Shown piece by piece: positions 11,330-28,088 of a DNA stretch of 28,088 bases. The translations under genes were made by a program, and so were the position numbers. Origin of the DNA: DAOVGU01 sp030637775 [NCBI: bacterium] (GTDB taxonomy: Bacteria; Ratteibacteria; UBA8468); NCBI GenBank assembly GCA_030637775.1, contig DAOWFY010000140.1, positions 1 to 28,088 of the forward strand, given 5' to 3'. The notes below the pieces were generated by a model. The model was given only the letters and a program-made list of their open reading frames with translations. It had not been told where the DNA came from and made no database searches. Positions within the stretch are counted from its first letter, which is position 1; every line of letters begins with the position of its first letter.

Positions 11330-11450
11330 GTTGCTGCGAGGATTGTCTGGAAGTGTAATCTATTCGCATATTTGCTACTAAAGTAGGCTGATAGTATAAT
11401 GTCGCAATTCCCTACTAAAGATGGTATAATTAATTAGTAGCGGAATTTAT
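11330..11450 (+). repeat. Repeat R1, copy A
   Basis: Shares the ordered blocks TTGCTGYGAG, CTATYCGCATATTTGCTAC, AAGTAG, CTGATAGTA, TCGCAATTCCCTACT and AGTAGCGGAATTT with copy B (22553-22708) and its first part with copy C (23162-23243, opposite strand). The last two blocks form a hairpin (AATTCCCTACT 11406-11416 with AGTAGCGGAATT 11436-11447). This copy fills most of the gap between the O-antigen polymerase/ligase gene and mntA. Confidence 0.8.
11372..11430 (+). promoter_or_regulatory. Candidate promoters of the MntA/HepT operon, inside repeat R1
   Basis: TTGCTA (11372-11377), 17 bases, TATAAT (11395-11400) is a good sigma70-type pair. A second one is the extended -10 TGGTATAAT (11422-11430) in the loop of the R1 hairpin. 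Copy B has TACAGT and no TATAAT at the matching places, so promoter strength differs between copies. Confidence 0.5.
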
Positions 11451-11470
11451 TTCGAATATTATAGAATTAT

Positions 11471-11767
11471 ATGAAGAAAATTTCAGAAAACCCAGAAAAG
11501 GAAATTAAGAATATTATCTTTCAGTTTTTGGACCCTAAGGAATATCAAGTTTTCATTTTTGGCTCAAGGGTTACTGGAAAAGCACAAAAATATAGCGATT
11601 ACGATGTAGGAATTCGGGGCAAAAAATCTTTACCTTCCAAGATTAAAGTTTTGATTGAAGAAGCATTGGAAGAATCTGATTTGCCTTACAAGGTTGATAT
11701 TATTGATTTTTCTTTGGTCTCTCCCAACTTTAAAAAAGTGGCTTTATCAAAAATTAAAAAATTATGA
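11471..11767 (+). CDS. mntA: MntA-like nucleotidyltransferase antitoxin
   Basis: Minimal nucleotidyltransferase (MNT) of the kind that neutralises a HEPN toxin by AMPylating it. The 98 residues contain the core motif FGSRVTGKAQKYSDYDVGI (GSRxxG plus the metal-binding SDYD pair) and a later acidic position in KVDIID, the usual three-carboxylate layout. It overlaps the HEPN gene by ATGA, the standard pairing in type VII toxin-antitoxin systems and in HI0073/HI0074. No clear Shine-Dalgarno precedes the ATG; transcription probably starts in R1 copy A. The pair is unrelated to the polysaccharide genes around it. Confidence 0.85.
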   Translation: MKKISENPEKEIKNIIFQFLDPKEYQVFIFGSRVTGKAQKYSDYDVGIRGKKSLPSKIKVLIEEALEESDLPYKVDIIDFSLVSPNFKKVALSKIKKL

Positions 11768-12135
11768 CTAAGTCAGAAAGTTTGATTAAAGATCTCAAAA
11801 AGGCTAATCAAAGATTAAAAGAAGCAACTGAAGCTAAACCGACAAGGATGAATAGAGATGCAACCATTCAAAGATTTGAATTCACTTTTGAACTTGCCTG
11901 GAAGACAATTCAAGAATATGTCCGAGACCAGGGTCTTGATTGCAAAAGTCCTAAAAATTGTATTCGAGAAGGAGGTCGGCTGGAATTAATCGAGAATGTC
12001 GAAAAATGGTTTAAGTTTTTAGATAATAGAAACCTTATTGCTCACACCTATAATGAGAAATTAGCCAACAAAGTTTATCGTAAGGCCTTGAAGTTTCCCC
12101 AGGAAATAGATGGTTTATTGGAAAGCCTTGGTTAG
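11764..12135 (+). CDS. hepT: HepT-like HEPN toxin / nucleotidyltransferase substrate-binding protein (HI0074 family)
   Basis: All-helical HEPN protein that in characterised systems acts as an RNase and is silenced by MntA-type AMPylation. The 123 residues carry the conserved FEFTFELAWKTIQEYV helix and the HEPN active-site motif RNLIAH (R-x4-H) followed by TYNE; the tyrosine just after the histidine is the residue modified in studied HepT proteins. The family is also annotated as nucleotidyltransferase substrate-binding protein. It is coupled to mntA through the ATGA overlap. An imperfect hairpin with a short T-run after it (12165-12194) may end the operon. Confidence 0.85.
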   Translation: MTKSESLIKDLKKANQRLKEATEAKPTRMNRDATIQRFEFTFELAWKTIQEYVRDQGLDCKSPKNCIREGGRLELIENVEKWFKFLDNRNLIAHTYNEKLANKVYRKALKFPQEIDGLLESLG

Positions 12136-13283: not shown

Positions 13284-13475
13284 ATGGGCAATAAAACAGT
13301 AAATATTCCAGTAAGAACTATTCATAAACTTCAAGAGGTTTTAACAGAATTAGAAAAGGCAATTTCTCCCTATAAAGCCAAATTTCTGGCAAGAATGTAT
13401 CGAGCCAGAGCCTCTGATTTGGAGGGAAAGGGAAAGAATTTGCCAGAAATTAAAAAACGATTCGGGAAGGATTGA
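13284..13475 (+). CDS. Small probable antitoxin paired with a RelE/ParE-type toxin
   Basis: A 63-residue charged, mostly helical protein with no recognised DNA-binding domain in the visible sequence (MGNKTVNIPVRTIHKLQEV start, basic C-terminus KKRFGKD). I call it an antitoxin only from context: it sits directly before, and overlaps (TGATG) with, a RelE/ParE-like toxin, has a strong ribosome binding site and a promoter of its own, and has the size of type II antitoxins. The first residues could form a short beta strand as in ribbon-helix-helix proteins, but this is not demonstrated. Confidence 0.65.
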   Translation: MGNKTVNIPVRTIHKLQEVLTELEKAISPYKAKFLARMYRARASDLEGKGKNLPEIKKRFGKD

Positions 13476-13756
13476 TGGGCTCTCGCTATGAAGTTATTTT
13501 TCTCCCCGAGGCAGAGGAAGACTTAGAAGATTTAGATCCTTCCATCCGTAAAAGGTGTTTAACCAAAATCGAATGGTTATCTTTGCATCCTGAAGTTCTC
13601 GGCAAGAAACCTCTCCAAAGTTTACCATCTTCCCTAAAAGGTCTTAACAGTTATGTAGTCGGTAATTGGCGAATTCTTTATTGGGTATACCCATCGCAAA
13701 AGTGCATCAAAATATATGGCATTCAGCATCGTTCTTCCATATACAAACATCTTTAA
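13475..13756 (+). CDS. RelE/ParE-type toxin
   Basis: Member of the RelE/ParE fold, which includes ribosome-dependent mRNA nucleases and gyrase poisons. The ATG at 13475 overlaps the antitoxin stop, giving 93 residues. The start YEVIFLPEAEEDLEDLDPSI, the central WRILYWVYPSQKCIKIYGI and the terminal HRSSIYKHL follow the family pattern, where the last helix/strand usually has H-R-x-x-x-Y. RelE-type (RNase) and ParE-type (gyrase) cannot be told apart here. The stop codon shares its last base with the start of the sugar transferase gene (TAATG), so translation of the two is likely coupled. Confidence 0.8.
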   Translation: MGSRYEVIFLPEAEEDLEDLDPSIRKRCLTKIEWLSLHPEVLGKKPLQSLPSSLKGLNSYVVGNWRILYWVYPSQKCIKIYGIQHRSSIYKHL

Positions 13757-18830: not shown

Positions 18831-20642
18831 ATGATGATGATGAAAAAGGGAATTTTTTTTCTATTAATCGCCGATATCATCCTTATTTATTCGGCAACAA
18901 TCTTAGCCTTCTGTATCCGCTTTCCTGACTTTCTGACCACACCTAACTTTCAGGCATACCAACCGATTGCTGTCTTTCTTGTAGTCATTAAACTTATTGT
19001 TTATTTGCTCTTTGGTCTCTACGGTGGAATCTGGAGGTACGCCAGCATTAATGAAGCCTTCTCTATATTTAAGGCAGTAACTGTAGCCTCCTTAGCAACG
19101 ATCGGTTTTGTCTTCTTTGTCCGGGTTCTTTCCTTTCCCCGTTCAGTCCTTCTGCTTGATTGGTTTTTCAATCTCCTTTTTATCGGTGGGGTAAGGTTTG
19201 CTCTCCGGTTGCGTAAAGAATTTCGAAAGCGTCAAGTGGCTCCCAACAAGCGGTTACTCATTATGGGAGCCGGCGATGCCGGGGAGATGGTCTTGCGTGA
19301 GATTCAGAAACACCCCGAGTTAGGTTATAAGGTTGTAGGCTTTATCGATGATGACTTAAAAAAGGTGGGAAGAAGAATCCATAATTTAGGGGTTTTAGGA
19401 ACAAGAAGGGAAATTGCCAGAATCGTTTCCCAGAAGAATGTTAATGAAATTGTTATCGCCATCCCTTCTGCCTCGGGGAAGACGATTAGAGAAATTGTCA
19501 GTTATTGCGAAAGGACAAGGGCAAAGTTAAAGATTCTACCCGGAATGTATAAGGTCATTAAGGGAGATGTGACTATCTCCCAGATCAGGGAGGTAAAACC
19601 AGAGGATCTTTTGGGCAGAGAGACGATTGAGATAAACTTAGAGGAGATCTCTCAATATTTAAGGGATAAATCTGTACTTGTCACCGGAGCAGCCGGCTCC
19701 ATCGGTTGCGAACTTTCCCGTCAAGTTATGAAATTTAACCCTAAGAAACTTCTCCTTTTGGATAATAATGAAAACGAGACCTATTTCCTGCAGATGGAGT
19801 TAAAGAAAAAGGAACATTCATTCCCGATCATTTTTCTTGTCAATGATATCAAAGAGAAGCAAGTCTTAGAGGCGATCTGGAAAGAGCACCAGCCAGAGGT
19901 AGTTTTCCACGCCGCCGCACACAAGCATGTTCCCTTGATGGAGGAAAATGTTGTTGGGGCAGTGAGAAATAACGTCCTGGGAACAAAAAATTTAATGGAG
20001 GCAGCAAAAAAAACGGAGAGGTTCATTCTTATCTCCACCGATAAGGCGGTGAATCCAAAAAGTATTATGGGGGCAACCAAAAGAATTACTGAATTAATGA
20101 TGCAACTCTCTACAAATGAAACAAAATTCTGTGCGGTGAGATTCGGCAATGTCCTGGGAAGTAAAGGAAGTGTAATTCCCCTCTTTAAAAAACAGATTGC
20201 CGAAGGTGGTCCGGTAACCGTAACCCATCCGGAAATAAAGCGCTACTTTATGAGTGCCCGGGAGGCGGTCAGCCTCATCATTCAGGCCGGAGCAATGAGT
20301 AAAGGTGGGGAGGTCTTTATTCTCGATATGGGAGAGCCGATAAAGATTATTGATTTAGCAAAAGACCTCATCACCCTCTCTGGTCTTCAACCGGAGACCG
20401 ATATTCCTGTTAAGATTATTGGTCTTCGTCCGGGAGAGAAGCTCAACGAGGAACTACTGACCGCCGAGGAGGGTATAAAAGCTACCAAGCATAAGAAGAT
20501 CTTTGTTGCCAGACCGGATACTGTTAATCCAGAAGAGTTACTAAAAGACCTCGATGATTTAGAAAGACTTACTCTCTCCGGAGAAAGAGATTCGATCGTC
20601 AAAAGGCTTCAGAAGATGAGGGTATTGCGAGGAGATGAATGA
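18831..20642 (+). CDS. Membrane-bound UDP-HexNAc 4,6-dehydratase (WbpM/CapD-like)
   Basis: Removes water from a UDP-HexNAc to give the 4-keto-6-deoxy form, the entry to several bacterial amino sugars. The 603 residues have four hydrophobic segments in the first ~115, a CoA-binding-like domain (LLIMGAGDAGEMVLREI), and a C-terminal SDR domain from about residue 282 with VTGAAGSIGCELSRQV, HAAAHKHVPLME, STDKAVNPKSIMGATKR and ITHP-like TVTHPEIKRYFMS. The catalytic position reads MGATK, the MxxxK form normal for large WbpM-type enzymes in place of YxxxK. The start is ATG repeated four times (18831-18842) with no Shine-Dalgarno. It overlaps the next gene by ATGA. Confidence 0.92.
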   Translation: MMMMKKGIFFLLIADIILIYSATILAFCIRFPDFLTTPNFQAYQPIAVFLVVIKLIVYLLFGLYGGIWRYASINEAFSIFKAVTVASLATIGFVFFVRVLSFPRSVLLLDWFFNLLFIGGVRFALRLRKEFRKRQVAPNKRLLIMGAGDAGEMVLREIQKHPELGYKVVGFIDDDLKKVGRRIHNLGVLGTRREIARIVSQKNVNEIVIAIPSASGKTIREIVSYCERTRAKLKILPGMYKVIKGDVTISQIREVKPEDLLGRETIEINLEEISQYLRDKSVLVTGAAGSIGCELSRQVMKFNPKKLLLLDNNENETYFLQMELKKKEHSFPIIFLVNDIKEKQVLEAIWKEHQPEVVFHAAAHKHVPLMEENVVGAVRNNVLGTKNLMEAAKKTERFILISTDKAVNPKSIMGATKRITELMMQLSTNETKFCAVRFGNVLGSKGSVIPLFKKQIAEGGPVTVTHPEIKRYFMSAREAVSLIIQAGAMSKGGEVFILDMGEPIKIIDLAKDLITLSGLQPETDIPVKIIGLRPGEKLNEELLTAEEGIKATKHKKIFVARPDTVNPEELLKDLDDLERLTLSGERDSIVKRLQKMRVLRGDE

Positions 20643-21844
20643 ATGCCCGAGAAAAATTGGTGAACCACTTAGAAAATATTGTAGAAATCTTTTTTCTCCT
20701 CTCGGTCTTCTGCATCCCTGCCGGTCCCGTCCTAAAGTATATCTTCCAGGGCGTTCTTCTTTTTACCTGGATTGTTAAACTTATCGTAAAAAGAGGAATA
20801 GAATTTAACCCTACCTCTCTGGATTACCCCATCCTTCTTTTCGTTATTCTTGGTTTTGCCTCTGTCGTCATAAATTATACGACATTTTATCAAGCCGGGA
20901 AGGGCTTTTCCAATCTCTTGGAATGGTTCTTTGCCTTTTACATTATCGTCCATCTTATCAGAAGAAAGGAACAGCTTAAAAGATTTACCAAGGTCTGGCT
21001 TTTCTCCGCCCTTACCGTTACCTTATATGGTATTTATCAAATTATAAGAGAACCAGGAGGTGCTGTAATCAGCTCCTTTTTCACTCTTAACTCCTATCTG
21101 GCTCAATACCTTGTCCTTATTATGCCGGTAATCCTTGCGCTCCTTCTCTTTAAAAAAACAAAAAAGGAGGGCTCCCGTCCGGTGGACGGGATGGGGAGAA
21201 TCTTTTTGGGAATAATCCTTCTTTTAACCTGGTTTCTCCTTGGCTTAACTATGGAAAGAGGTCCCTGGTTAGGAATCATAGTTGGACTTCTGATGATGGG
21301 GATAGTTCTTCGGGATAAGCGCATCCTTATCGGAATCCCCCTTCTCCTTATGTTGAGCTTCTTTATCTCTCCTCCATCCATCAGAATAAGAGCCATCTCT
21401 ATCTTCCAGCCACGCTGGAGTTTAGAAAGGCTTTACTGCTGGAGGTCTTGTCTCTCAATGACTAAAGACCATCCCTTCTTTGGGGTGGGATTGGGCAACT
21501 TCCGTTATGTTTACCCAAAATATATGCTCGGCGCAGCAAAGGTGAAGTTCCTGCATGCCCATAATATCTTCTTCCAGATTGCTACCGAAATGGGAATCCC
21601 GGGACTGCTTGTTTTCCTCTGGCTATTGTTTAATTTCTTTAAAGCCACCCTTTCTCACATTCAGAAAGACAAATACTTAAGAGCCCTGAATGTAGGTTTT
21701 TCCGCGGGAATCATTGCGATATTGGTCACCAGCCTTTTCCATGATATCTTTCATAGCCGGCAGATTGCCACTTTAACCTGGTATATTATCGGAATGGCGA
21801 TAGCCTCTCATAAGCTGAAAGATCAAGAGACCCCCGGCGATTAA
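20639..21844 (+). CDS. O-antigen ligase/polymerase (WaaL/Wzy family), second copy, with an in-frame palindromic element
   Basis: Periplasmic-side membrane enzyme that either ligates or polymerises the glycan. The 401 residues have about ten to twelve hydrophobic segments and the Wzy_C pattern: SMTKDHPFFGVGLGNFRYV followed by HAHNIFFQIATEMGIPG near residues 280-330. The start shares ATGA with the dehydratase stop. In a short cytoplasmic loop the sequence KEGSRPVDGMGR (176-187) is encoded by palindromic element P1, also found in gyrA in the same frame. Its last 72 bases overlap the end of lgt on the other strand. As a second member of the family in the window it may be the ligase, with the copy at 10111 the polymerase, but this is a guess. 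Confidence 0.83.
   Translation: MNAREKLVNHLENIVEIFFLLSVFCIPAGPVLKYIFQGVLLFTWIVKLIVKRGIEFNPTSLDYPILLFVILGFASVVINYTTFYQAGKGFSNLLEWFFAFYIIVHLIRRKEQLKRFTKVWLFSALTVTLYGIYQIIREPGGAVISSFFTLNSYLAQYLVLIMPVILALLLFKKTKKEGSRPVDGMGRIFLGIILLLTWFLLGLTMERGPWLGIIVGLLMMGIVLRDKRILIGIPLLLMLSFFISPPSIRIRAISIFQPRWSLERLYCWRSCLSMTKDHPFFGVGLGNFRYVYPKYMLGAAKVKFLHAHNIFFQIATEMGIPGLLVFLWLLFNFFKATLSHIQKDKYLRALNVGFSAGIIAILVTSLFHDIFHSRQIATLTWYIIGMAIASHKLKDQETPGD
21164..21198 (+). repeat. Palindromic element P1 in the second O-antigen ligase gene
   Basis: AAGGAGGGCTCCCGT, a variable triplet, GTG, then ACGGGATGG follow one another as in gyrA (26529-26561, minus strand). The core palindrome CCCGTCC-GGT-GGACGGG spans 21174-21190. 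It is read in frame as EGSRPVDGM. Confidence 0.65.
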
Positions 21845-22552
21845 AAAGATGAAAAAGGAGATGACCTGGGTAGGATAAAGGGAAAAGAAAACCGGATTTA
21901 AGTTACCTCTGAGAAAATCTATACTATATCGAGATATGGAATAGAGGAGGAAATAGAAAATTACAATATTTCCATCTTTTGCCCAAGGAGAAAGACTCTT
22001 TTTCTGTTTGCAAAGAAAGAGCAAAATTAAAAAAATTGAAAAATTACTCAAGCTATAGTACAGTTGTGTTGGATGTCGGGATATACCGTCGAAGGGAAAC
22101 CTTGCCCCCCAGAAAAAATCCGTTTCTTTGCCATAGCAGCAGCCGTTAAGGAAGCAGCCAATCCTTCCTATTGCTTGCGCCAAAGGGAGGTAGAGCCCAA
22201 AGTAATCCAATACCCTTAGGGTTGGCAGGCCTGTTCTGCGCAGAAAGAATATTGCCGCGAATAGACCAAAGATGAGGCCTCCTTGAGCCGCCATTCCTCC
22301 GTGGCGGATGGCAATGACTTCGGCAGGATGATGAAGATAGTAGGAGAAATGAACAAGGATATGCAGTAACCTTGCCCCAAAAAGCCCGATGATAACAACC
22401 AGAAAGACAATATTTAAGAGAGCTTCTTCATTCAGTCCTTCCTTTCTTCCGCGGCGTAGCACCAGGAAGCTAACCCAGAGGACTGAAAAAGCAATGACCA
22501 CACCATAGGAATAGATAGCAAAATTACCAATCTTAAAGAGGACGGGATGCAT
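21773..22552 (-). CDS. lgt: Prolipoprotein diacylglyceryl transferase
   Basis: Transfers diacylglycerol from phosphatidylglycerol to the lipobox cysteine, the first step of lipoprotein maturation, in the inner membrane. The 259 residues contain seven or so hydrophobic segments, HGGMAAQGGLIFG, the signature GRIGCFLNGCCYG (the C-rich form of GRxGNFxNGE-x-x-G) and HPTQLYYSL, all in the expected order. Length is typical. The second-step enzyme lspA is just upstream in the same direction. No Shine-Dalgarno is seen: repeat R1 copy B ends directly against the ATG. The 3' end overlaps the + strand O-antigen ligase gene by 72 bases, with no terminator between them. Confidence 0.95.
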   Translation of the reverse strand: MHPVLFKIGNFAIYSYGVVIAFSVLWVSFLVLRRGRKEGLNEEALLNIVFLVVIIGLFGARLLHILVHFSYYLHHPAEVIAIRHGGMAAQGGLIFGLFAAIFFLRRTGLPTLRVLDYFGLYLPLAQAIGRIGCFLNGCCYGKETDFFWGARFPFDGISRHPTQLYYSLSNFSIFLILLFLCKQKKSLSPWAKDGNIVIFYFLLYSISRYSIDFLRGNLNPVFFSLYPTQVISFFIFLIAGGLLIFQLMRGYRHSDNIPG

Positions 22553-22708
22553 TTGCTGTGAGAATTATCTGAAAGTTAATCTATCCGCATATTTGCTACA
22601 AGATTAATTTGAAAGTTAACTTTCGCATATTGCTACTGAAGTAGCCTGATAGTACAGTCTCGCAATTCCCTACTGAAGACAACTTGATTAGGAAGTAGCG
22701 GAATTTTT
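22553..22708 (+). repeat. Repeat R1, copy B, with an internal duplication
   Basis: Same ordered blocks as copy A. It carries an extra unit: GAAAGTTAATCTATCCGCAT and following (22571-22599) is partly repeated as GAAAGTTAACTTTCGCAT and following (22611-22636). The perfect small hairpin GCTACT-GA-AGTAGC (22632-22645) and the larger hairpin AATTCCCTACT (22664-22674) with AGTAGCGGAATT (22694-22705) are present. It fills the whole lgt-lspA gap and runs into the lspA 3' end. Confidence 0.8.
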
Positions 22709-23155
22709 TATCTCATGAATTAACAGAATTATAATTCCAATTGTGATGCCACTATCGGCTAAATTAAAGATCGGCCAAACCCTGAAATCAAGGAAATCAA
22801 TCACCGCCCCAAATCTTACCCGGTCGATAAGGTTTCCCAAAATTCCTCCTGTGATAAGTCCGGTTGCTATCCTTTGAGCTCGATTCCTTCTTGCTCTTCG
22901 CAAGAAAAATATAAGCATACCTATTGCTAAGAGAGATAGGACCAGATAAAATAAAAGGGGGATTTTCCCTTTGAAGAGGCCAAAGGAGATCCCAGGATTT
23001 TTAATGTAGGTAAGATACAAAAGATGAGGGATAAGCACAACCGATTGACCCTGGTATAGAGAAAGTCTGACCAAATATTTTGTCAGCTGGTCAAAAAAAA
23101 GGACAATAATCCCAACCCAAATGGACATATGGACATGGGGGTCAGGTCTCAACAT
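22688..23155 (-). CDS. lspA: Lipoprotein signal peptidase (signal peptidase II)
   Basis: Cuts the signal peptide from diacylglyceryl-modified prolipoproteins in the inner membrane. Motifs in order: FFDQLTKYL, YIKNPGISFGLF (NxGxxFG type), GNLIDRV, and the catalytic aspartates in GAVIDFLDF and FNLADSGI. Four hydrophobic segments; 155 residues. The start is uncertain: the ATG at 23155 lies in the arm of an inverted repeat and adds MLRPDPHVH, while the ATG at 23128 (MSIWVGIIVLFFDQ) leaves a slightly short first helix; neither has a Shine-Dalgarno. The last five codons (NSATS) come from repeat R1 copy B. Thus both ends of this gene are touched by repeat DNA. Confidence 0.93.
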   Translation of the reverse strand: MLRPDPHVHMSIWVGIIVLFFDQLTKYLVRLSLYQGQSVVLIPHLLYLTYIKNPGISFGLFKGKIPLLFYLVLSLLAIGMLIFFLRRARRNRAQRIATGLITGGILGNLIDRVRFGAVIDFLDFRVWPIFNLADSGITIGIIILLIHEIKNSATS

Positions 23156-23283
23156 TTGACAAACTTACGACACCATACTTTCTGCTTACTTTAGTAGTAA
23201 TATGCGGATAGCCCCTGATTAAATCAGGGGTACTCACAGCAAATGTTTATTTGGTAAATTGTCAAATGTTGAGACCTGACCCC
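23138..23283. mobile_element. Non-autonomous element bounded by a 23-bp perfect inverted repeat
   Basis: The left arm (23138-23160, beginning GGGGTCAGGTCTC and ending ACATTTGAC) is the exact reverse complement of the right arm (23261-23283). The 100 bases between hold R1 copy C and no gene. From memory, ends of this kind accompany REP-associated tyrosine transposases in many bacteria; no transposase is present here, so a REPIN/MITE-like element is the best description. Confidence 0.65.
23162..23243 (-). repeat. Repeat R1, copy C, with an internal palindrome
   Basis: Read on the minus strand it has TTTGCTGTGAG, CTATCCGCATATT, CTACTAAAGTA, then a diverged stretch matching TAGTATAATGTCGCAA of copy A. 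The spacer between the first two blocks is replaced by the palindrome CCCCTGATT-A-AATCAGGGG (23212-23230). The 3' hairpin part is missing. It lies wholly inside the 23-bp inverted repeat element. Confidence 0.65.
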
Positions 23284-23639
23284 TCATCTTTCTTCTGGCA
23301 GGCAATGCAAAGTCTGGCATAAGGAAGAGCGCGCAGCCTCTTTTTGCCAATCTTTTTACGGCATTCCTCGCAAATCCCAAATAATTTTTTTTCAAGTTTT
23401 GCCAGAGCATTATTAATTTCTACGATCAGTTTACCTTCGGAAGAGGCAAGATCCAGGTCCAAATTTTTCTCAAAGTTATCACTGGCCAACTCAGCCAAGT
23501 GTGTTGGAATACCTGGATTCTCGCCTTCTACCTGTCTCAACTCCAAACTACCCTTCTGGAGAGCTCCAATCGCCTCTAAAATTCTAATCTTTTCCTTGAT
23601 CAGCAATTTTTTGTATTTCTCCCTTTCCTTTTTATTCAT
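23262..23639 (-). CDS. DksA/TraR-family zinc-finger protein
   Basis: Small regulator of the type that binds the secondary channel of RNA polymerase. I prefer the ATG at 23639 (MNKKEREKYKKLL, 125 residues) because a purine-rich ribosome binding site (GGGGAAGG) precedes it; an ATG at 23654 overlapping the archease stop adds MRGRK. A long charged helical region is followed by the four-cysteine finger CEEC...CIAC in LFGICEECRKKIGKKRLRAL. The acidic tip residues of true DksA are not clear, so I do not assign the symbol. The C-terminal GSGLNI and the stop codon are encoded by the right arm of the inverted-repeat element. Downstream genes lspA and lgt are in the same direction, a common order. Confidence 0.87.
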   Translation of the reverse strand: MNKKEREKYKKLLIKEKIRILEAIGALQKGSLELRQVEGENPGIPTHLAELASDNFEKNLDLDLASSEGKLIVEINNALAKLEKKLFGICEECRKKIGKKRLRALPYARLCIACQKKDEGSGLNI

Positions 23640-23650
23640 TTTCCTTCCCC

Positions 23651-24115
23651 TCATAAATCAAAGATAATTCTTGTTTGCCAGAGATTTGGCTTTTTCTGTA
23701 ATACTTTCAGGTTATGGTAAGTAGCAGCTTTTATCTCCCTTTTTGGGATTTGGCTATTTTTTTTAATCTTTCCCTTCAGGCAAAATCTATTTTTTATCTT
23801 TCCAATCTTAATTTTGAATTGAGCAAAAATTGCTTTTTCCTTCTCCGCAAGATAGAGCAGTTCGTTAAGGAAACTTACCAAAAGTTCCTCCAAGGTTTTT
23901 GCTGTAACCTTAATTTTGAATTCAATACCATAGGAATTTCCTTTGTAGGGGCTTGATTTATCAAGCCCGCGGGTCGGATGAATCCGACCCCTACACAGTT
24001 TTCCTCCCGCGATGATGCTAAACATCCCGGCTGCGCTCTCTGTAAAGAGTTCCTCCTTGCTCTTCCCTTCGATCAAAAGTCCAATATCTGCCGTATGGTC
24101 AATGACCCGAAACAT
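23651..24115 (-). CDS. Archease, with an in-frame palindromic element
   Basis: Archease activates the RNA ligase RtcB (no rtcB is in the window). Family features: [19 protein letters not shown] at the start, [19 protein letters not shown] in the middle, [11 protein letters not shown] and the end RIIFDL with the metal-binding Asp. The 154 residues exceed the usual ~135-140. The excess is residues 41-58 ([10 protein letters not shown], then LDKSSPYK), encoded by a 52-bp palindromic element at 23944-23995 placed in the region between the first helix and the next strand. The start overlaps the gyrA end by 17 bases, with GGAGGAGGG as ribosome binding site. Function is probably retained because both flanks are conserved and in frame. 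Confidence 0.88.
23944..23995. repeat. Palindromic element P2 inside archease
   Basis: Outer arms TGTAGGGG (23944-23951) and CCCCTACA (23988-23995) enclose two hairpins: GCTTGAT-TT-ATCAAGC (23951-23966) and GGGTCGGAT-GA-ATCCGACCC (23971-23990). The outer arms extend to 11 bases with one mismatch. No stop codon is created in the archease frame. Confidence 0.75.
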
Positions 24116-26591
24116 TACCCTCCTCCATCAGGATAACGGAGATATCGCCAATGAAGTCCCCTTTATCTAAGTTAATCAGTTTTACGCCCTGAGTGTTTCT
24201 TCCGATGGGACGGATATCCTTCACGGGAAGGCGAATAATTATCCCTCTTGTGGTAATCAGCATAATCTCATCATCAACGCTTACACTCTTGATGCCCACA
24301 ACATCTCCATTCCTCCCCTTGGTCTTGATATCAATAATTCCCTTGCCACCCCTCTTCTGTTTCCGGTAAAGTTTAACCTTGCTGCGCTTTCCAAAGCCAT
24401 TGGCCGTGACGGTAAGCAGGGAATAATCTTCTTCGGCCACCTCGGCTCCTTTTACCAAATCGCCCTTGGACAGTCTAATTCCACGCACCCCTCTTGCGGT
24501 CCTCCCCATCGGCCGGACATCCTCTTCAGAAAAGTGAATCGATTTACCCTCTCTGGTGGAGAGAATAAGGTCCTTTTTTCCATCGGTAAGTTTTACCTCA
24601 ATCAACTCATCATCCTTTTTCAGGGTAAGAGCGATGATTCCCCCGCGCCTTTGGTGGCTATAGGCAGAAACAGCGGTCTTCTTCACCATTCCCTTCCTGG
24701 TTGCCATCAGCAGAAACAGATTGGCAGAATATTCCTTAATGGGAATAACGGCGGTAACTACCTCCTCGGTGCTAATCTTAAGAAGATTGATGATTGCCTT
24801 TCCCTTTGACTGTCGACTGGCTTCCGGAATCTGATAGGTGGGGAGCCAGTAGACCCGGCCCTTATTGGTGAAGAATAAAAGGGTATCATGGGTAGAGGCA
24901 ATAAAGAAATGCTTGATGTAGTCCTCATCCTTGGTTCTTGCCCCAATGATCCCTTTTCCTCCTCGGTGTTGCCTGCGGTAGGTATCTACCGGAACCCGTT
25001 TCACATAACCGGAGGCAGAAATCGTAATGGCAACATCCTCCTTTTTCACTAAATCAATCTCGGAAAGATCCTCTATTGCCCCAATAATCTTTGTCCTGCG
25101 CTGATCACCAAATCGCTTTTTCAAAGCCGCTAAATCATCCCTAATTACACCGGAAATCTTTTTTTCGCTGGCAAGAATAGACTTCAGTCGCTGAATCTCT
25201 TTTGTCAGTGCTTTGTGTTCCTCATCTATTTTTTCCCGCTCCAATTTAGTCAGACGAGAAAGGGGCATCGCGAGGATGCTGTCGGCCTGAATGGAAGAAA
25301 GTTTAAATGTTTTTATCAGAGAGGATTTAGCTGCTTCCACACTACTGCTCTTTTTGATGAGCTTTATCACCCGATCGATATGCAGGAGAGCAATCTTCAA
25401 ACCAGCAAGGATATGGGCTCGATTCTCTGCTCTCTTCAACTCAAATTGGGTGCGCCGCCTCACCACCTCTCTTCTGTGCTCTAAATAGTGAATCAGCAGT
25501 TCCCGAAGGGGGAGTATTCTTGGTCGATTTTTGACAAGAGCGAGATTAATAATGCCAAAACTGGTGCGCAATGCGGTATGCTTATAGAGTTGATTAAGGA
25601 TAACGTCGGGGTTTTCCCCTGATTTTAGTTCAATGCAGATCCTCATCCCCTCCTTATCGGACTCATCGCGGATTGTGCTGATTCCTTCAATTTTCCTTTC
25701 CTGGGCAAGTGTCGCAATATTTTCGATGAGAGCGCTCTTGTTTACTTCATAGGGGAGTTCCGTAACAATTAAAGCGGCTCTTCCCCTTTCCAACTCCTCT
25801 CCTTTTACCTTGCTCTGTAAGGTAATGATGCCCCTTCCCGTGCGGTAAGCCTCCAGGATTCCTTTTCTTCCGCAGATAAAGCCCCCGGTGGGGAAGTCCG
25901 GTCCGGACAAGACCTTCATCAATTCTTCCAGGTTGCTATCCGGTTTCTCAATCAGAAGAGTAAGGGCATCGATTACCTCATTAATGTTATGGGGAGGGAT
26001 GTTGGTTGCCATGCCCACGGCAATGCCTGAACTGCCATTAAGAAGAAGATTGGGGAGGGAGGAAGGAAGAATGGTTGGCTCGGCCAATGTCCCATCGAAA
26101 TTTGGCGCAAAATTGACCGTTTCCTTATCGATATCGGAGAGAAGAGAAGAGGCAACAGGGGAAAGCCTTGCTTCGGTATACCTCATTGCTGCCGGAGGGT
26201 CTCCATCAACCGAGCCAAAATTTCCCTGACCATCAATAAGAGGGTATCTCAAGGAAAAATCCTGACACATCCGGGTAATGGTGTCATAGATCGCCGCATC
26301 CCCATGGGGGTGATATTTTCCCATCACCTCACCAACAATTCTGGCACTCTTCTTGTAAGGCTTGCCGACAGTTACCCCTAATTCAGACATTCCGTAGAGA
26401 ATTCTCCGGTGCACCGGTTTTAGACCGTCCCTGACATCGGGAAGAGCCCTTCCCACAATAACGCTCATCGCATAGTCAATGTAGGAAGATTTCATCTCCC
26501 TCTCAATCTCTACCGGAACTACCCTCTTCTCCATCCCGTGCACAACACGGGAGCCCTCCTTAACTATCACCTCTTTTTCTTTCTTCACCAT
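24099..26591 (-). CDS. gyrA: DNA gyrase subunit A, with a repeat-encoded N-terminal segment
   Basis: Breakage-reunion subunit of gyrase, partner of GyrB (not in the window). Motifs: [35 protein letters not shown], the active-site tyrosine 138 in [11 protein letters not shown], and in the C-terminal beta-pinwheel RQHRGGKG and KQKRGGKG, close to the GyrA box (QRRGGKG). Length 830, normal for GyrA. The residue equivalent to E. coli Ser83 is Ala99. Numbering is 16 higher than in E. coli because of an N-terminal extension in which [12 protein letters not shown] (11-22) is encoded by element P1. A later start at Met20 is possible but has no ribosome binding site at a normal distance. The end overlaps archease by 17 bases. 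Confidence 0.95.
26529..26561 (-). repeat. Palindromic element P1 in gyrA
   Basis: On the minus strand AAGGAGGGCTCCCGT, a variable triplet, GTG, one changed triplet, then GGGATGG; the ligase copy at 21164-21198 matches at about 27 of 33 bases and is read in the same frame. The palindrome CCCGTG-CACAA-CACGGG lies at 26535-26551. Confidence 0.65.
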
Positions 26592-26632
26592 TTTATTTTT
26601 TATTGGTTTTTATTGTTTTTTCTTTCTCCCGA

Positions 26633-26728
26633 GAGATGACTGAAGTTTGTGAGCGAGTTGGCGGTTATGCTCCCAGAGCACGATAGTGCCGAGGAATAAG
26701 AAAGCCCGAGCGAACAAACTTTAGTCAT
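26633..26728. repeat. Repeat R2, complete copy, with 15-bp inverted ends
   Basis: Arms ATGACTGAAGTTTGT (26636-26650) and ACAAACTTTAGTCAT (26714-26728) pair at 14 of 15 positions. The interior carries smaller complementary segments such as GCAC-GATA-GTGC (26678-26689 region). The first 54 bases match 28035-28088 at 50 positions. The right arm includes the TGA stop of the GspE/PilB gene. Confidence 0.75.
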
Positions 26729-27978
26729 TTCTTATCACTTTTTGTCATTCTCAGAACATCAGGAAGAGCAACAATTCCCAAGACGCTCTTCTTCATTCCA
26801 TCCTCGCGAAGAGTCTGCATTCCCGCTTTTCGAGCCCCCTCCTTGACTCCCTCGGTGGGAGCTTTCTCCAGGATTAATCCTCTAATCTCTTCATTGGTAA
26901 CCATCAATTCAAATAGTCCGGTCCTTCCCTTATATCCCGTGCCATTGCATTCGTTGCATCCCTCCCCGCGACAAAAGAAGGAAGCCTCTTCCCCCCTCTC
27001 CTCAATCCTCCCCCCTTGAGGGGGAGAAGATAGGTGGGGGGGTAAATTCAGTTCTGCAAGTACTTCCGGTGAAGGTTGGTACTGCTTTTTGCAGGAATCA
27101 CACAGGGTGCGTACCAATGTTTGTGAAAGAACACCGATGACCGAGGAGGCAATCAGGAAGGGTTCAACCCCCATATCAATCAGCCGGGTAACAGCTCCAG
27201 GGGCGGTATTGGTATGCAAAGTGGCAAAGACAAGCTGGCCGGTCTGGGCTACCTGAAAAGAGATGGAAGCGGTCTCTGCATCCCTAATCTCGCCGACCAT
27301 AACCACATCCGGGTCCTGTCGTAAAATTGAGCGAAGCCCCGTGGCAAAGTTCATCCCGGCCTTAGGATTGATTTGGGCCTGAACAAGGCCGGGGATATGG
27401 TATTCCACCGGATCCTCAATGGTAATGATATGGGTTCGGGCCGATTTAATCTTGTTAAGGGAACTATAAAGGGTAGTGCTTTTTCCCCCGCCGGTAGGAC
27501 CGGCAACCAAAATGATGCCGTAGGGCTCTTCCAAAATCTTCTGGTAGCGGGCAAGAGTCGGAGGCTGAAATCCTAACTGGTCAAAACCTAAAAGAATATT
27601 GCGCTTATCCAGGATTCTAATCGCCACCGCCTCACCAAAGATGGTAGGATAGGTGGAGATACGCAGATGCACCCCTCCACCCTTAACCGTGGCTTTGTAG
27701 GCTCCACTCTGGGGAATGCGTCTTTCTGCAATATCCAAATTTGCCAGGACCTTGATTCTGGTAACAATCGCCTGATAAAATTCTCTCGGTGGGGGGTCGA
27801 AGTTATAGAGAAGTCCATTGATTCTAAAACGAAGGGAGGTGGTCTCCTCGGTCTCTAAATGGACATCGGTGGCCTTCTGCTCCACCGCCTGAGAGAGAAT
27901 AGAATCGACAATGGCGGTAGCCGAGGAATATTCCGTTTCCGAAATTTTAGCTTTAGTAAAATCAAGTCTCTCCACCAT
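26725..27978 (-). CDS. GspE/PilB-type secretion or pilus-assembly ATPase, with an in-frame palindromic element
   Basis: Hexameric ATPase powering type II secretion or type IV pilus assembly at the inner membrane. Motifs: Walker A GPTGGGKSTTLY (about residues 160-171), the Asp box IITIEDPVEY, Walker B RQDPDVVMVGEIRDAETA, the His box FATLHTNTA, and a tetracysteine zinc site (CDSC and CNECNGTGYKGR). The usual N-terminal MshEN-type domain is absent; the protein starts almost at the T2SSE core. Start ATG 27978 chosen; an in-frame TTG at 28014 is also possible, and neither has a good ribosome binding site. A loop between the cysteine pairs, beginning PPHLSSPPQGGRIEERG, is encoded by element P3. The stop codon lies in repeat R2. 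GspE and PilB cannot be told apart without partners. Confidence 0.9.
   Translation of the reverse strand: MVERLDFTKAKISETEYSSATAIVDSILSQAVEQKATDVHLETEETTSLRFRINGLLYNFDPPPREFYQAIVTRIKVLANLDIAERRIPQSGAYKATVKGGGVHLRISTYPTIFGEAVAIRILDKRNILLGFDQLGFQPPTLARYQKILEEPYGIILVAGPTGGGKSTTLYSSLNKIKSARTHIITIEDPVEYHIPGLVQAQINPKAGMNFATGLRSILRQDPDVVMVGEIRDAETASISFQVAQTGQLVFATLHTNTAPGAVTRLIDMGVEPFLIASSVIGVLSQTLVRTLCDSCKKQYQPSPEVLAELNLPPHLSSPPQGGRIEERGEEASFFCRGEGCNECNGTGYKGRTGLFELMVTNEEIRGLILEKAPTEGVKEGARKAGMQTLREDGMKKSVLGIVALPDVLRMTKSDKK
26991..27042. repeat. Palindromic element P3 inside the GspE/PilB gene
   Basis: A 52-base C- and G-rich imperfect palindrome: outer runs CCCCCC (26991-26996) and GGGGGG (27036-27042), inner CTCCCCCC-TTGA-GGGGGAG (27008-27025). 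It codes without a stop for PPHLSSPPQGGRIEERG in a region where PilB proteins vary in length. Confidence 0.7.
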
Positions 27979-28031
27979 AATATATACACACAGACAATGG
28001 TCGTTGCGCAGCAATCATTAAGTAATTACAG

Positions 28032-28088
28032 GAGATGACTGGGGTTTGGAAGCGAGTTGGCGGTTATGCTCCCAGAGCACGATAGTGC
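28032..28088. repeat. Repeat R2, second copy, cut by the window end
   Basis: GAGATGACT and the 48 bases after it match 26633-26689 at all but four positions in the same orientation. The two copies flank the GspE/PilB gene as direct repeats. The right arm lies beyond the window. Confidence 0.75.

What the first reader, a model, noticed from the sequence alone, without database searches (positions are those of the whole stretch)
20639..28014. A cluster of repeat-to-protein conversions: several repeat families entering conserved genes
Within 7.4 kb, P1 (twice), P2 and P3 lie inside coding regions, and the 23-bp inverted repeat, R1 and R2 form gene starts, stops or tails. Six of seven genes in this interval are affected. 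The + strand polysaccharide genes upstream show no such inserts that I can see. This points to a genome with high activity of small palindromic elements and strong frame filtering, a system beyond the single-family Rickettsia case.
Basis: inference. Interest (0 to 1): 0.82.

Follow-up and report, generated by a model that had tools for sequence, protein, structure and literature searches.

The report
Palindromic DNA repeats inside conserved genes
In an uncultured bacterium, several families of tiny hairpin-forming DNA repeats have landed inside conserved genes without breaking them and are probably read as extra stretches of protein, a multi-family relative of a phenomenon first described in Rickettsia.

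Summary
P1 (twice), P2 and P3 lie in frame inside O-antigen ligase, gyrA, archease and a PilB/GspE-type ATPase; TIR, R1 and R2 repeats overlap starts, stops or tails; six of seven genes are touched. In this Omnitrophota MAG (1.4 Mb) all 18 P1 matches lie in ORFs (17 sense, in frame), as do 14 of 22 examined P2 and 12 of 20 P3 elements, in genes such as dnaX, polA, uvrA, recJ, ftsK and alaS. Relatives show clean empty sites (P1 adds 27 bp), shared sites and palindromes nested in palindromes. Reading-frame use is non-random. In a small, partly targeted G000-G001 comparison, 23 of 31 in-frame length differences are palindromic or repeated. P2 is a GTAG REP; TIR/R1 are ends of a Y1-transposase (TIRYT-like) element; the mover of P1, P2 and P3 was not found. 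In-frame intragenic REPs were already known (Rickettsia RPEs; GTAG/CGTC REPs, 2013), and Rickettsia has several families, so this is a new variant, not a new kind. Unexplained: P1's 17:1 sense bias although all six readings are open, and why the same REP unit lies in long ORFs here but not in another Omnitrophota family.

The parts
21166..21194 (+). P1 copy in the O-antigen ligase gene, read EGSRPVDGM
26531..26559 (-). P1 copy near the start of gyrA, read EGSRVVHGM; absent from the 28 other gyrA N-termini read
23944..23995 (-). P2: pair of inverted GTAG REP units in archease, read [17 protein letters not shown]
26991..27043 (-). P3 imperfect palindrome in the PilB/GspE-type ATPase gene; absent from 19 aligned homologs
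23138..23283 (.). 146-bp MITE with 25-bp TIRs; ends match those of a Y1-transposase element (L265)
22577..22709 (.). R1 copies; overlap the last codons of lspA; R1 also lies inside the Y1 element
11356..11451 (.). R1 copy between genes upstream of the interval
26633..26734 (.). R2, a roughly 100-bp dispersed repeat between gyrA and the ATPase gene, overlapping the ATPase gene end
28032..28088 (.). R2 copy cut by the window end
20639..21844 (+). O-antigen ligase (Wzy_C) host gene
21773..22552 (-). lgt, not affected
22688..23155 (-). lspA; listed start in the TIR, end in R1
23262..23654 (-). dksA/traR-type gene; tail in the TIR
23651..24115 (-). archease host gene
24099..26591 (-). gyrA host gene
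26725..27978 (-). PilB/GspE-type ATPase host gene (ATG start; a TTG at 28014 is doubtful)

Best explanation
Several families of small palindromic mobile repeats insert across this genome. Where the net insert is a multiple of three (P1: 27 bp at two clean empty sites), has no stop in the host's frame and falls in a variable spot, the host gene stays open and the insert is kept as a translated loop or tail; other insertions are lost. P2 is a pair of inverted GTAG REP units, presumably moved in trans by a RAYT-type Y1 transposase through single-stranded DNA. TIR and R1 are ends of a TIRYT-like Y1 element and its MITEs. P1 and P3 probably use a comparable hairpin route. Shown: the repeats, in-frame placement, empty and shared sites, nesting, biased reading frames. 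Inferred: the mobilising enzymes for P1-P3, translation, and near-neutrality.
For: Copies against reversed controls. All 18 P1 inside ORFs, 17 sense and in frame. P2 readings 12:2:0 over three open readings, p=1.4e-4; P1 sense readings 13:7:1 over G000 plus four G001 copies, p=0.006. 36 of 39 listed hosts have a Pfam family at E<=1e-4 (window hosts E<=1e-3). Clean empty sites: P1 27 bp in aspartokinase and RecJ, a GTAG unit 30 bp in DegT; P3 absent from 19 other ATPase homologs. Shared sites: PheT, aspartokinase, RecJ, archease. Flanks of 23 inserts less conserved than their genes, 70% against 82%, p=0.003. Archease model disordered at 42-62, the insert being 41-57. Y1 gene between the TIRs with R1 in L265 and G001 L267.
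Against: No transposase gene with P1, P2 or P3 ends was seen among the 8 Y1 loci read. Translation is not shown. P1's 17:1 sense bias is not explained by stop codons, all six readings being open. 18 of 18 in genes is not unusual at 0.90 coding. The ortholog comparison is small and partly targeted: only 8 of 76 pairs are untargeted, with 3 events, 2 meeting the criterion. One host is a likely pseudogene. P2 lies in no predicted gene in 6 of 22 and P3 in 6 of 20 cases.
Confidence: 0.8

Rival explanations
1. Gene location and orientation come from strand-directed insertion (single-stranded DNA of the lagging-strand template, as documented for IS608 and ISDra2) rather than mainly from selection on the protein.
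For: P1 17 of 18 sense, p=1.4e-4, with all six readings open; PMC6006769 passages on IS200/IS605 targeting of the lagging-strand template; repeated nesting of palindromes in palindromes.
Against: Contigs are short and replication strand was not tested; P2 reading bias follows hydrophilicity; antisense P1 exists in PheT and another G001 ORF.
Confidence: 0.15
2. The inserts are functional, domesticated modules kept by positive selection (pause hairpins, loops with a role).
For: Sites shared between genera (aspartokinase G000/G002, RecJ G000/G003) and kept hairpins.
Against: Many unrelated hosts; exact absence in close relatives; different repeats at the same archease site; less conserved flanks.
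Confidence: 0.06
3. The inserts are not translated but skipped by ribosome bypassing or removed from RNA (a class of element recalled from yeast mitochondria).
For: Short, hairpin-forming, in otherwise conserved genes.
Against: Three of six P2 readings contain stops, yet all 14 intragenic G000 copies use stop-free readings; net lengths at the measured empty sites are multiples of three. Caveat: genes were called from open frames, so copies that break a frame could be missed.
Confidence: 0.04
4. Assembly artefact or decaying genes.
For: MAG in 177 contigs; the Sir2-like host L098 has its downstream part in another frame.
Against: The same sites are occupied in separate MAGs; hosts are conserved genes with open frames and Pfam domains.
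Confidence: 0.02

Closest known systems
Intragenic GTAG/CGTC REPs (Di Nocera et al. 2013, PMC3733652; section 15 and passages seen)
   Same: Tagged palindromes in frame inside genes of several species, dimers encoding 20-30 residues, many in DNA synthesis and repair genes; P2 carries the GTAG tag; the paper lists UvrA, DNA polymerase I and tRNA synthetase hosts, as here.
   Different: There most REPs are intergenic; here 14 of 22 examined P2 elements are intragenic. P1 and P3 carry neither tag. Nested palindromes and species-level empty sites are shown here.
Rickettsia palindromic elements (PMC3767692 and PMC2229807, passages seen)
   Same: Palindromes inserted in frame in conserved genes; several families; different families near the same site in orthologs; PheT among the proteins modelled there and a P1 host here.
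   Different: RPEs are about 100-150 bp in obligate intracellular bacteria; P1 adds 27 bp, P2 and P3 are about 50 bp, in an Omnitrophota MAG. Sequence relation not tested.
TIRYT / TIRtrons (PMC3733652 passages)
   Same: Y1 transposase gene flanked by long TIRs, with dispersed TIR repeats; TIR begins GGGGTCAG, which fits GGGGWSAS.
   Different: Here the element also contains R1 and left a MITE between lspA and dksA.
Double-foot REPs of TnpA-REP subclass 2.4 (Quentin et al. 2018, PMC6006769, passages)
   Same: GTAG at one end and CTAC at the other, as in P2; REPs inserted in frame within genes.
   Different: Those reported lie within tnpA-REP genes; here hosts are many other genes, and no P2-associated Y1 gene was seen.

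Membership tests
GTAG REP (for P2) | GTAG/GTGG tag 0-2 nt before a hairpin with basal stem of 7-20 bp and loop of 2-5 nt (definition in PMC6006769 passages) | tested here: met
   GTAG followed directly by GGGTCGGAT NN ATCCGACCC, 9-bp stem and 2-nt loop
GTAG REP (for P2) | multiple dispersed copies | tested here: met
   47 half-site matches against 1 in the control
GTAG REP (for P2) | cognate RAYT gene flanked by the same REP | tested here: not met
   None of the 8 Y1 loci of G000-G003 shows P2; the MAGs are incomplete, and PMC3733652 also reports REPs without obvious correlation to the genes, so I call P2 REP-like by tag and structure
GTAG or CGTC REP (for P1 and P3) | unpaired GTAG or CGTC tag at one end | tested here: not met
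   No such end in the aligned P1 copies, where CGTC lies within the stem, nor in P3; by eye
TIRYT / TIRtron (for TIR, R1) | Y1 transposase gene between long TIRs | tested here: met
   PF01797 match E=2e-16 in G000:C119; TIRs at L265:921-945 and 2080-2104 around ORF 925-1863
TIRYT / TIRtron (for TIR, R1) | TIR motif GGGGWSAS (some members) | tested here: met
   TIR starts GGGGTCAG
Rickettsia palindromic elements | palindromic repeat in frame within conserved genes | tested here: met
Rickettsia palindromic elements | sequence homology to RPE families | not tested
   No RPE sequences were fetched; not filed as RPE
Rickettsia palindromic elements | host protein expressed and active with the insert (guanylate kinase, PMC2229807 passage) | not testable with these tools
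   needs proteomics or enzyme assays

The most novel reading that the evidence does not exclude
P1 is a coding-sequence-adapted mobile palindrome: 27 bp net, so always in frame, stop-free in all six readings, and placed on the sense strand of genes by a still unknown single-strand mechanism; together with the REP-like families it makes palindrome insertion a main source of protein-length change in this Omnitrophota family.
Probability: 0.15. Interest if true: 0.88.

Novelty: new variant of a known kind. Interest (0 to 1): 0.62.

Why it matters
It adds a multi-family case of mobile palindromes becoming coding sequence, well outside Rickettsia, with clean empty sites, shared older sites and nested insertions in related genomes. 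It makes two questions testable: what moves such repeats, and whether frame filtering alone or strand-directed insertion puts them inside genes. One GTAG unit that lies in long ORFs in this family and not in another Omnitrophota family is a natural experiment. It also warns that alignments and models of such proteins contain mobile-DNA segments.

Tried and rejected
Chance repeats: rejected by copy numbers against reversed-pattern controls. Mostly pseudogene hosts: rejected; one of 39 listed hosts (L098) looks broken. Rfam: 0 matches at gathering score in 20400-28088. P2 in viral contigs: 0 exact matches to one 31-position pattern. De novo 14-mer repeats in the 512-kb sample recovered R2, TIR, P3, R1, P2 and other families, but not P1 at its threshold of four. 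Patterns written for two further palindromes found 0 copies in the G000 sample. Weak 3-mismatch P1-pattern matches in G004 and G026 do not look like P1.

Limits. Gene calls are from a home-made hexamer and length caller that missed lgt and lspA in the window, so counts outside genes may be high; one G001 P2 copy (C176) is outside genes for that caller but in a 520-residue open frame. The Counter counts each palindrome on both strands; I counted reading peptides by hand. In one search, 15 of 47 rows belong to one divergent protein (a9, 62.5% identity) and were dropped; 32 rows became 31 events. One search printed 14 of the archease rows. No control genus could be compared. Orientation against replication strand was not tested. 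DNA-repair enrichment was not tested. An earlier count said 22 archease relatives and an earlier one says 29 gyrA relatives lack the insert; the printed rows bear out 11 and 28. PMC186582 is not held.

Full report
Source. The window is the start of contig C12 of an unnamed MAG of 1,397,272 bases in 177 contigs, 83.5% complete. The nearest named gyrA relatives are Candidatus Omnitrophota MAGs, the best at 62% identity, so I place it in Omnitrophota by inference. G001 is of the same genus; G002 and G003 of the same family.

What is in the interval. P1 lies in the O-antigen ligase (21166-21194) and gyrA (26531-26559), P2 in archease (23944-23995), P3 in a PilB/GspE-type ATPase (26991-27043). A 146-bp MITE with 25-bp TIRs lies between lspA and dksA/traR, R1 beside lspA, R2 by the ATPase gene. 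Six of seven genes are touched; lgt is not.

Genome-wide counts. P1: 18 matches, reversed control 0; all 18 lie inside ORFs, 17 sense and in frame (readings 10:6:1), one antisense in PheT. Coding fraction in the sample is 0.90, so 18 of 18 in genes is not unusual by itself. P2: 47 half-site matches, 1 in the control. Grouped by position (my grouping), 22 elements have context: 14 inside genes, 2 at gene ends, 6 in no predicted gene; six further places, mostly 2-mismatch matches, were not examined (C171, C143, C62, C78:8271, C89:609, C102). P3: 25 matches, 2 in the control, making 20 elements: 12 inside genes, 2 at edges, 6 outside. In contrast, in the 512-kb sample TIR is inside genes in 1 of 19, R1 in 0 of 19 and R2 in 1 of 5.

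Hosts. One search lists 39 distinct host ORFs; four are window proteins and 35 were scanned; three of these (L095, L098, L215) had no family at E<=1e-4. Hosts include FtsK, a class-III aminotransferase, DnaX, DNA polymerase I, RecJ (P1 and P3), aspartokinase (two P1), LplA, PheT, UvrA, a class-I tRNA synthetase, UvrC, a Mur-ligase-domain protein, DegT, a semialdehyde dehydrogenase, an IF-2B-family protein, an AIRS-domain protein, PfkB (P2 and P3), AlaRS and ETF alpha; finer names such as ArgC, MtnA or IleRS are my reading. L098 is Sir2-like by eye and its downstream part lies in another frame: the one likely pseudogene. Overlap with the DNA-repair bias of Di Nocera et al. was not tested for enrichment.

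Frame filtering. P2 has three stop-free readings of six. The 14 intragenic G000 copies use them 12:2:0 (p=1.4e-4 against equal use); in the G001 sequence held, 8:1:1 (hand count), some at shared sites. The preferred reading [17 protein letters not shown] is hydrophilic (GRAVY -1.23); [17 protein letters not shown] is not (0.65). The third open reading, antisense, is also hydrophilic (-1.00) yet nearly unused, so hydrophilicity is not the whole story. P1 sense readings over G000 and four G001 copies are 13:7:1 (p=0.006). P1 is open in all six readings with similar hydropathy, yet 17 of 18 are sense (p=1.4e-4; 21 of 23 with five further G001 copies, p=6.6e-5). Stops do not explain that.

Empty and shared sites. 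Against G001, P1 is missing cleanly by 27 bp at the second aspartokinase site and in RecJ, and a single GTAG unit by 30 bp in DegT. The gyrA P1 is absent from 28 of 28 other gyrA N-termini printed (the G001 copy lacks its N-terminus); the net difference from G002 is 30 bp by hand. P3 in the ATPase is absent from 19 of 19 other homologs aligned (the G001 row is a paralog at 52%). Shared sites: PheT (G000, G001), first aspartokinase site (G000, G002), RecJ (G000, G003 but not G001), archease P2 (G000, G001). RecJ thus implies precise loss or repeated insertion. Archease in G001 carries another palindrome nested in frame inside P2, G002 has a different repeat at that site, and the 11 further rows printed have no insert. 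Other nestings, by eye: P1 in P3 in the polymerase I gene and L095, and in G001 L229 and G003 L226, the last outside genes; R1 inside a GTAG-type unit in the G001 O-antigen ligase.

How much protein variation. Between held parts of G000 and G001, 76 reciprocal-best pairs (median 85% identity) gave 47 internal differences of 7 or more residues. Without one divergent protein (15 rows) and after merging, 31 events remain: 23 are hairpin-rich (p<0.05 against 400 coding windows) or match three or more places; 22 by the stricter cut. Eight were neither. The set is biased towards contigs with P1, P2 or P3: only 8 pairs are untargeted, with 3 events, 2 meeting the stricter cut. Residues beside such inserts are less conserved than their genes (70% against 82%, n=23, p=0.003). 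An AlphaFold2 model of archease from 5 sequences (mean pLDDT 77) is below 50 at residues 42-62; the P2 peptide is 41-57.

Movers. TIR and R1 lie on an element with a Y1_Tnp gene in L265 and in G001 L267, fitting the TIRYT description and its GGGGWSAS motif. The window MITE shares these ends. G001 has TIRs at the same place with another interior, and its lspA seems to start within the TIR. None of the 8 Y1 loci shows P1 or P2; one (L268) has a loose P3 match nearby.

Distribution. The P2 unit occurs in 6 of 35 genomes of the phylum: G000-G003, and G004 and G008 of another family, with 52 places in G008. P1 occurs in 4 of 35, all of this family. With the archease protein as query, P2-type matches lie in open frames of 200 or more residues in 14 of 23 places in G000 and G001 (archease itself excluded) and in 0 of 19 in G008 (Fisher p=2.7e-5). 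The two loci read from G008 and G004 are outside predicted genes, one from G003 is inside. A P2-like dimer outside predicted genes also stands in an Auribacterota record (L059). Whether the lineages differ in tolerance or in targeting I cannot tell.

Prior art. Searches listed no paper on intragenic palindromes in Omnitrophota; the library holds open-licence papers only. I saw section 15 and passages of PMC3733652, and passages of PMC3767692, PMC2229807 and PMC6006769. They establish in-frame palindromes in several species, several RPE families, an active RPE-bearing guanylate kinase, and double-foot REPs. The finding is therefore a new variant of a known kind.

Noticed in passing
L265:921-2104 and L267:668-1898: Complete-looking TIRYT-type element (Y1 transposase ORF, 25-bp TIRs, R1 inside) in G000 and G001; source of the TIR and R1 repeats.
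   Followed up: yes
G008 and G004; L059:9840-9893: The 24-base P2 unit is identical in another Omnitrophota family, and a similar dimer stands in an Auribacterota record, which hints at horizontal spread.
   Followed up: partly
L105 and L224 (PheT): At one shared PheT site P1 has CCCATCC..GGATGGG in G000 and CCCGTCC..GGACGGG in G001: paired stem changes, so conversion, template switching or repeated insertion.
   Followed up: no
window 26633-26734 and 28032-28088: R2, a roughly 100-bp dispersed repeat with inverted ends, about 30 matches in the genome; looks like a MITE, mover unknown.
   Followed up: partly
L098:1393-1641: Sir2-like P1 host whose downstream part lies in another frame; likely pseudogene.
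   Followed up: partly
window 11471-12135 and 13472-13756: Small gene pair and a single gene that look like MNT/HEPN and RelE-type toxin-antitoxin genes (recalled resemblance, no family search).
   Followed up: no
L349:2900-3070 (G001): TIRs at the same lspA-dksA site as in the window but with a different interior.
   Followed up: partly
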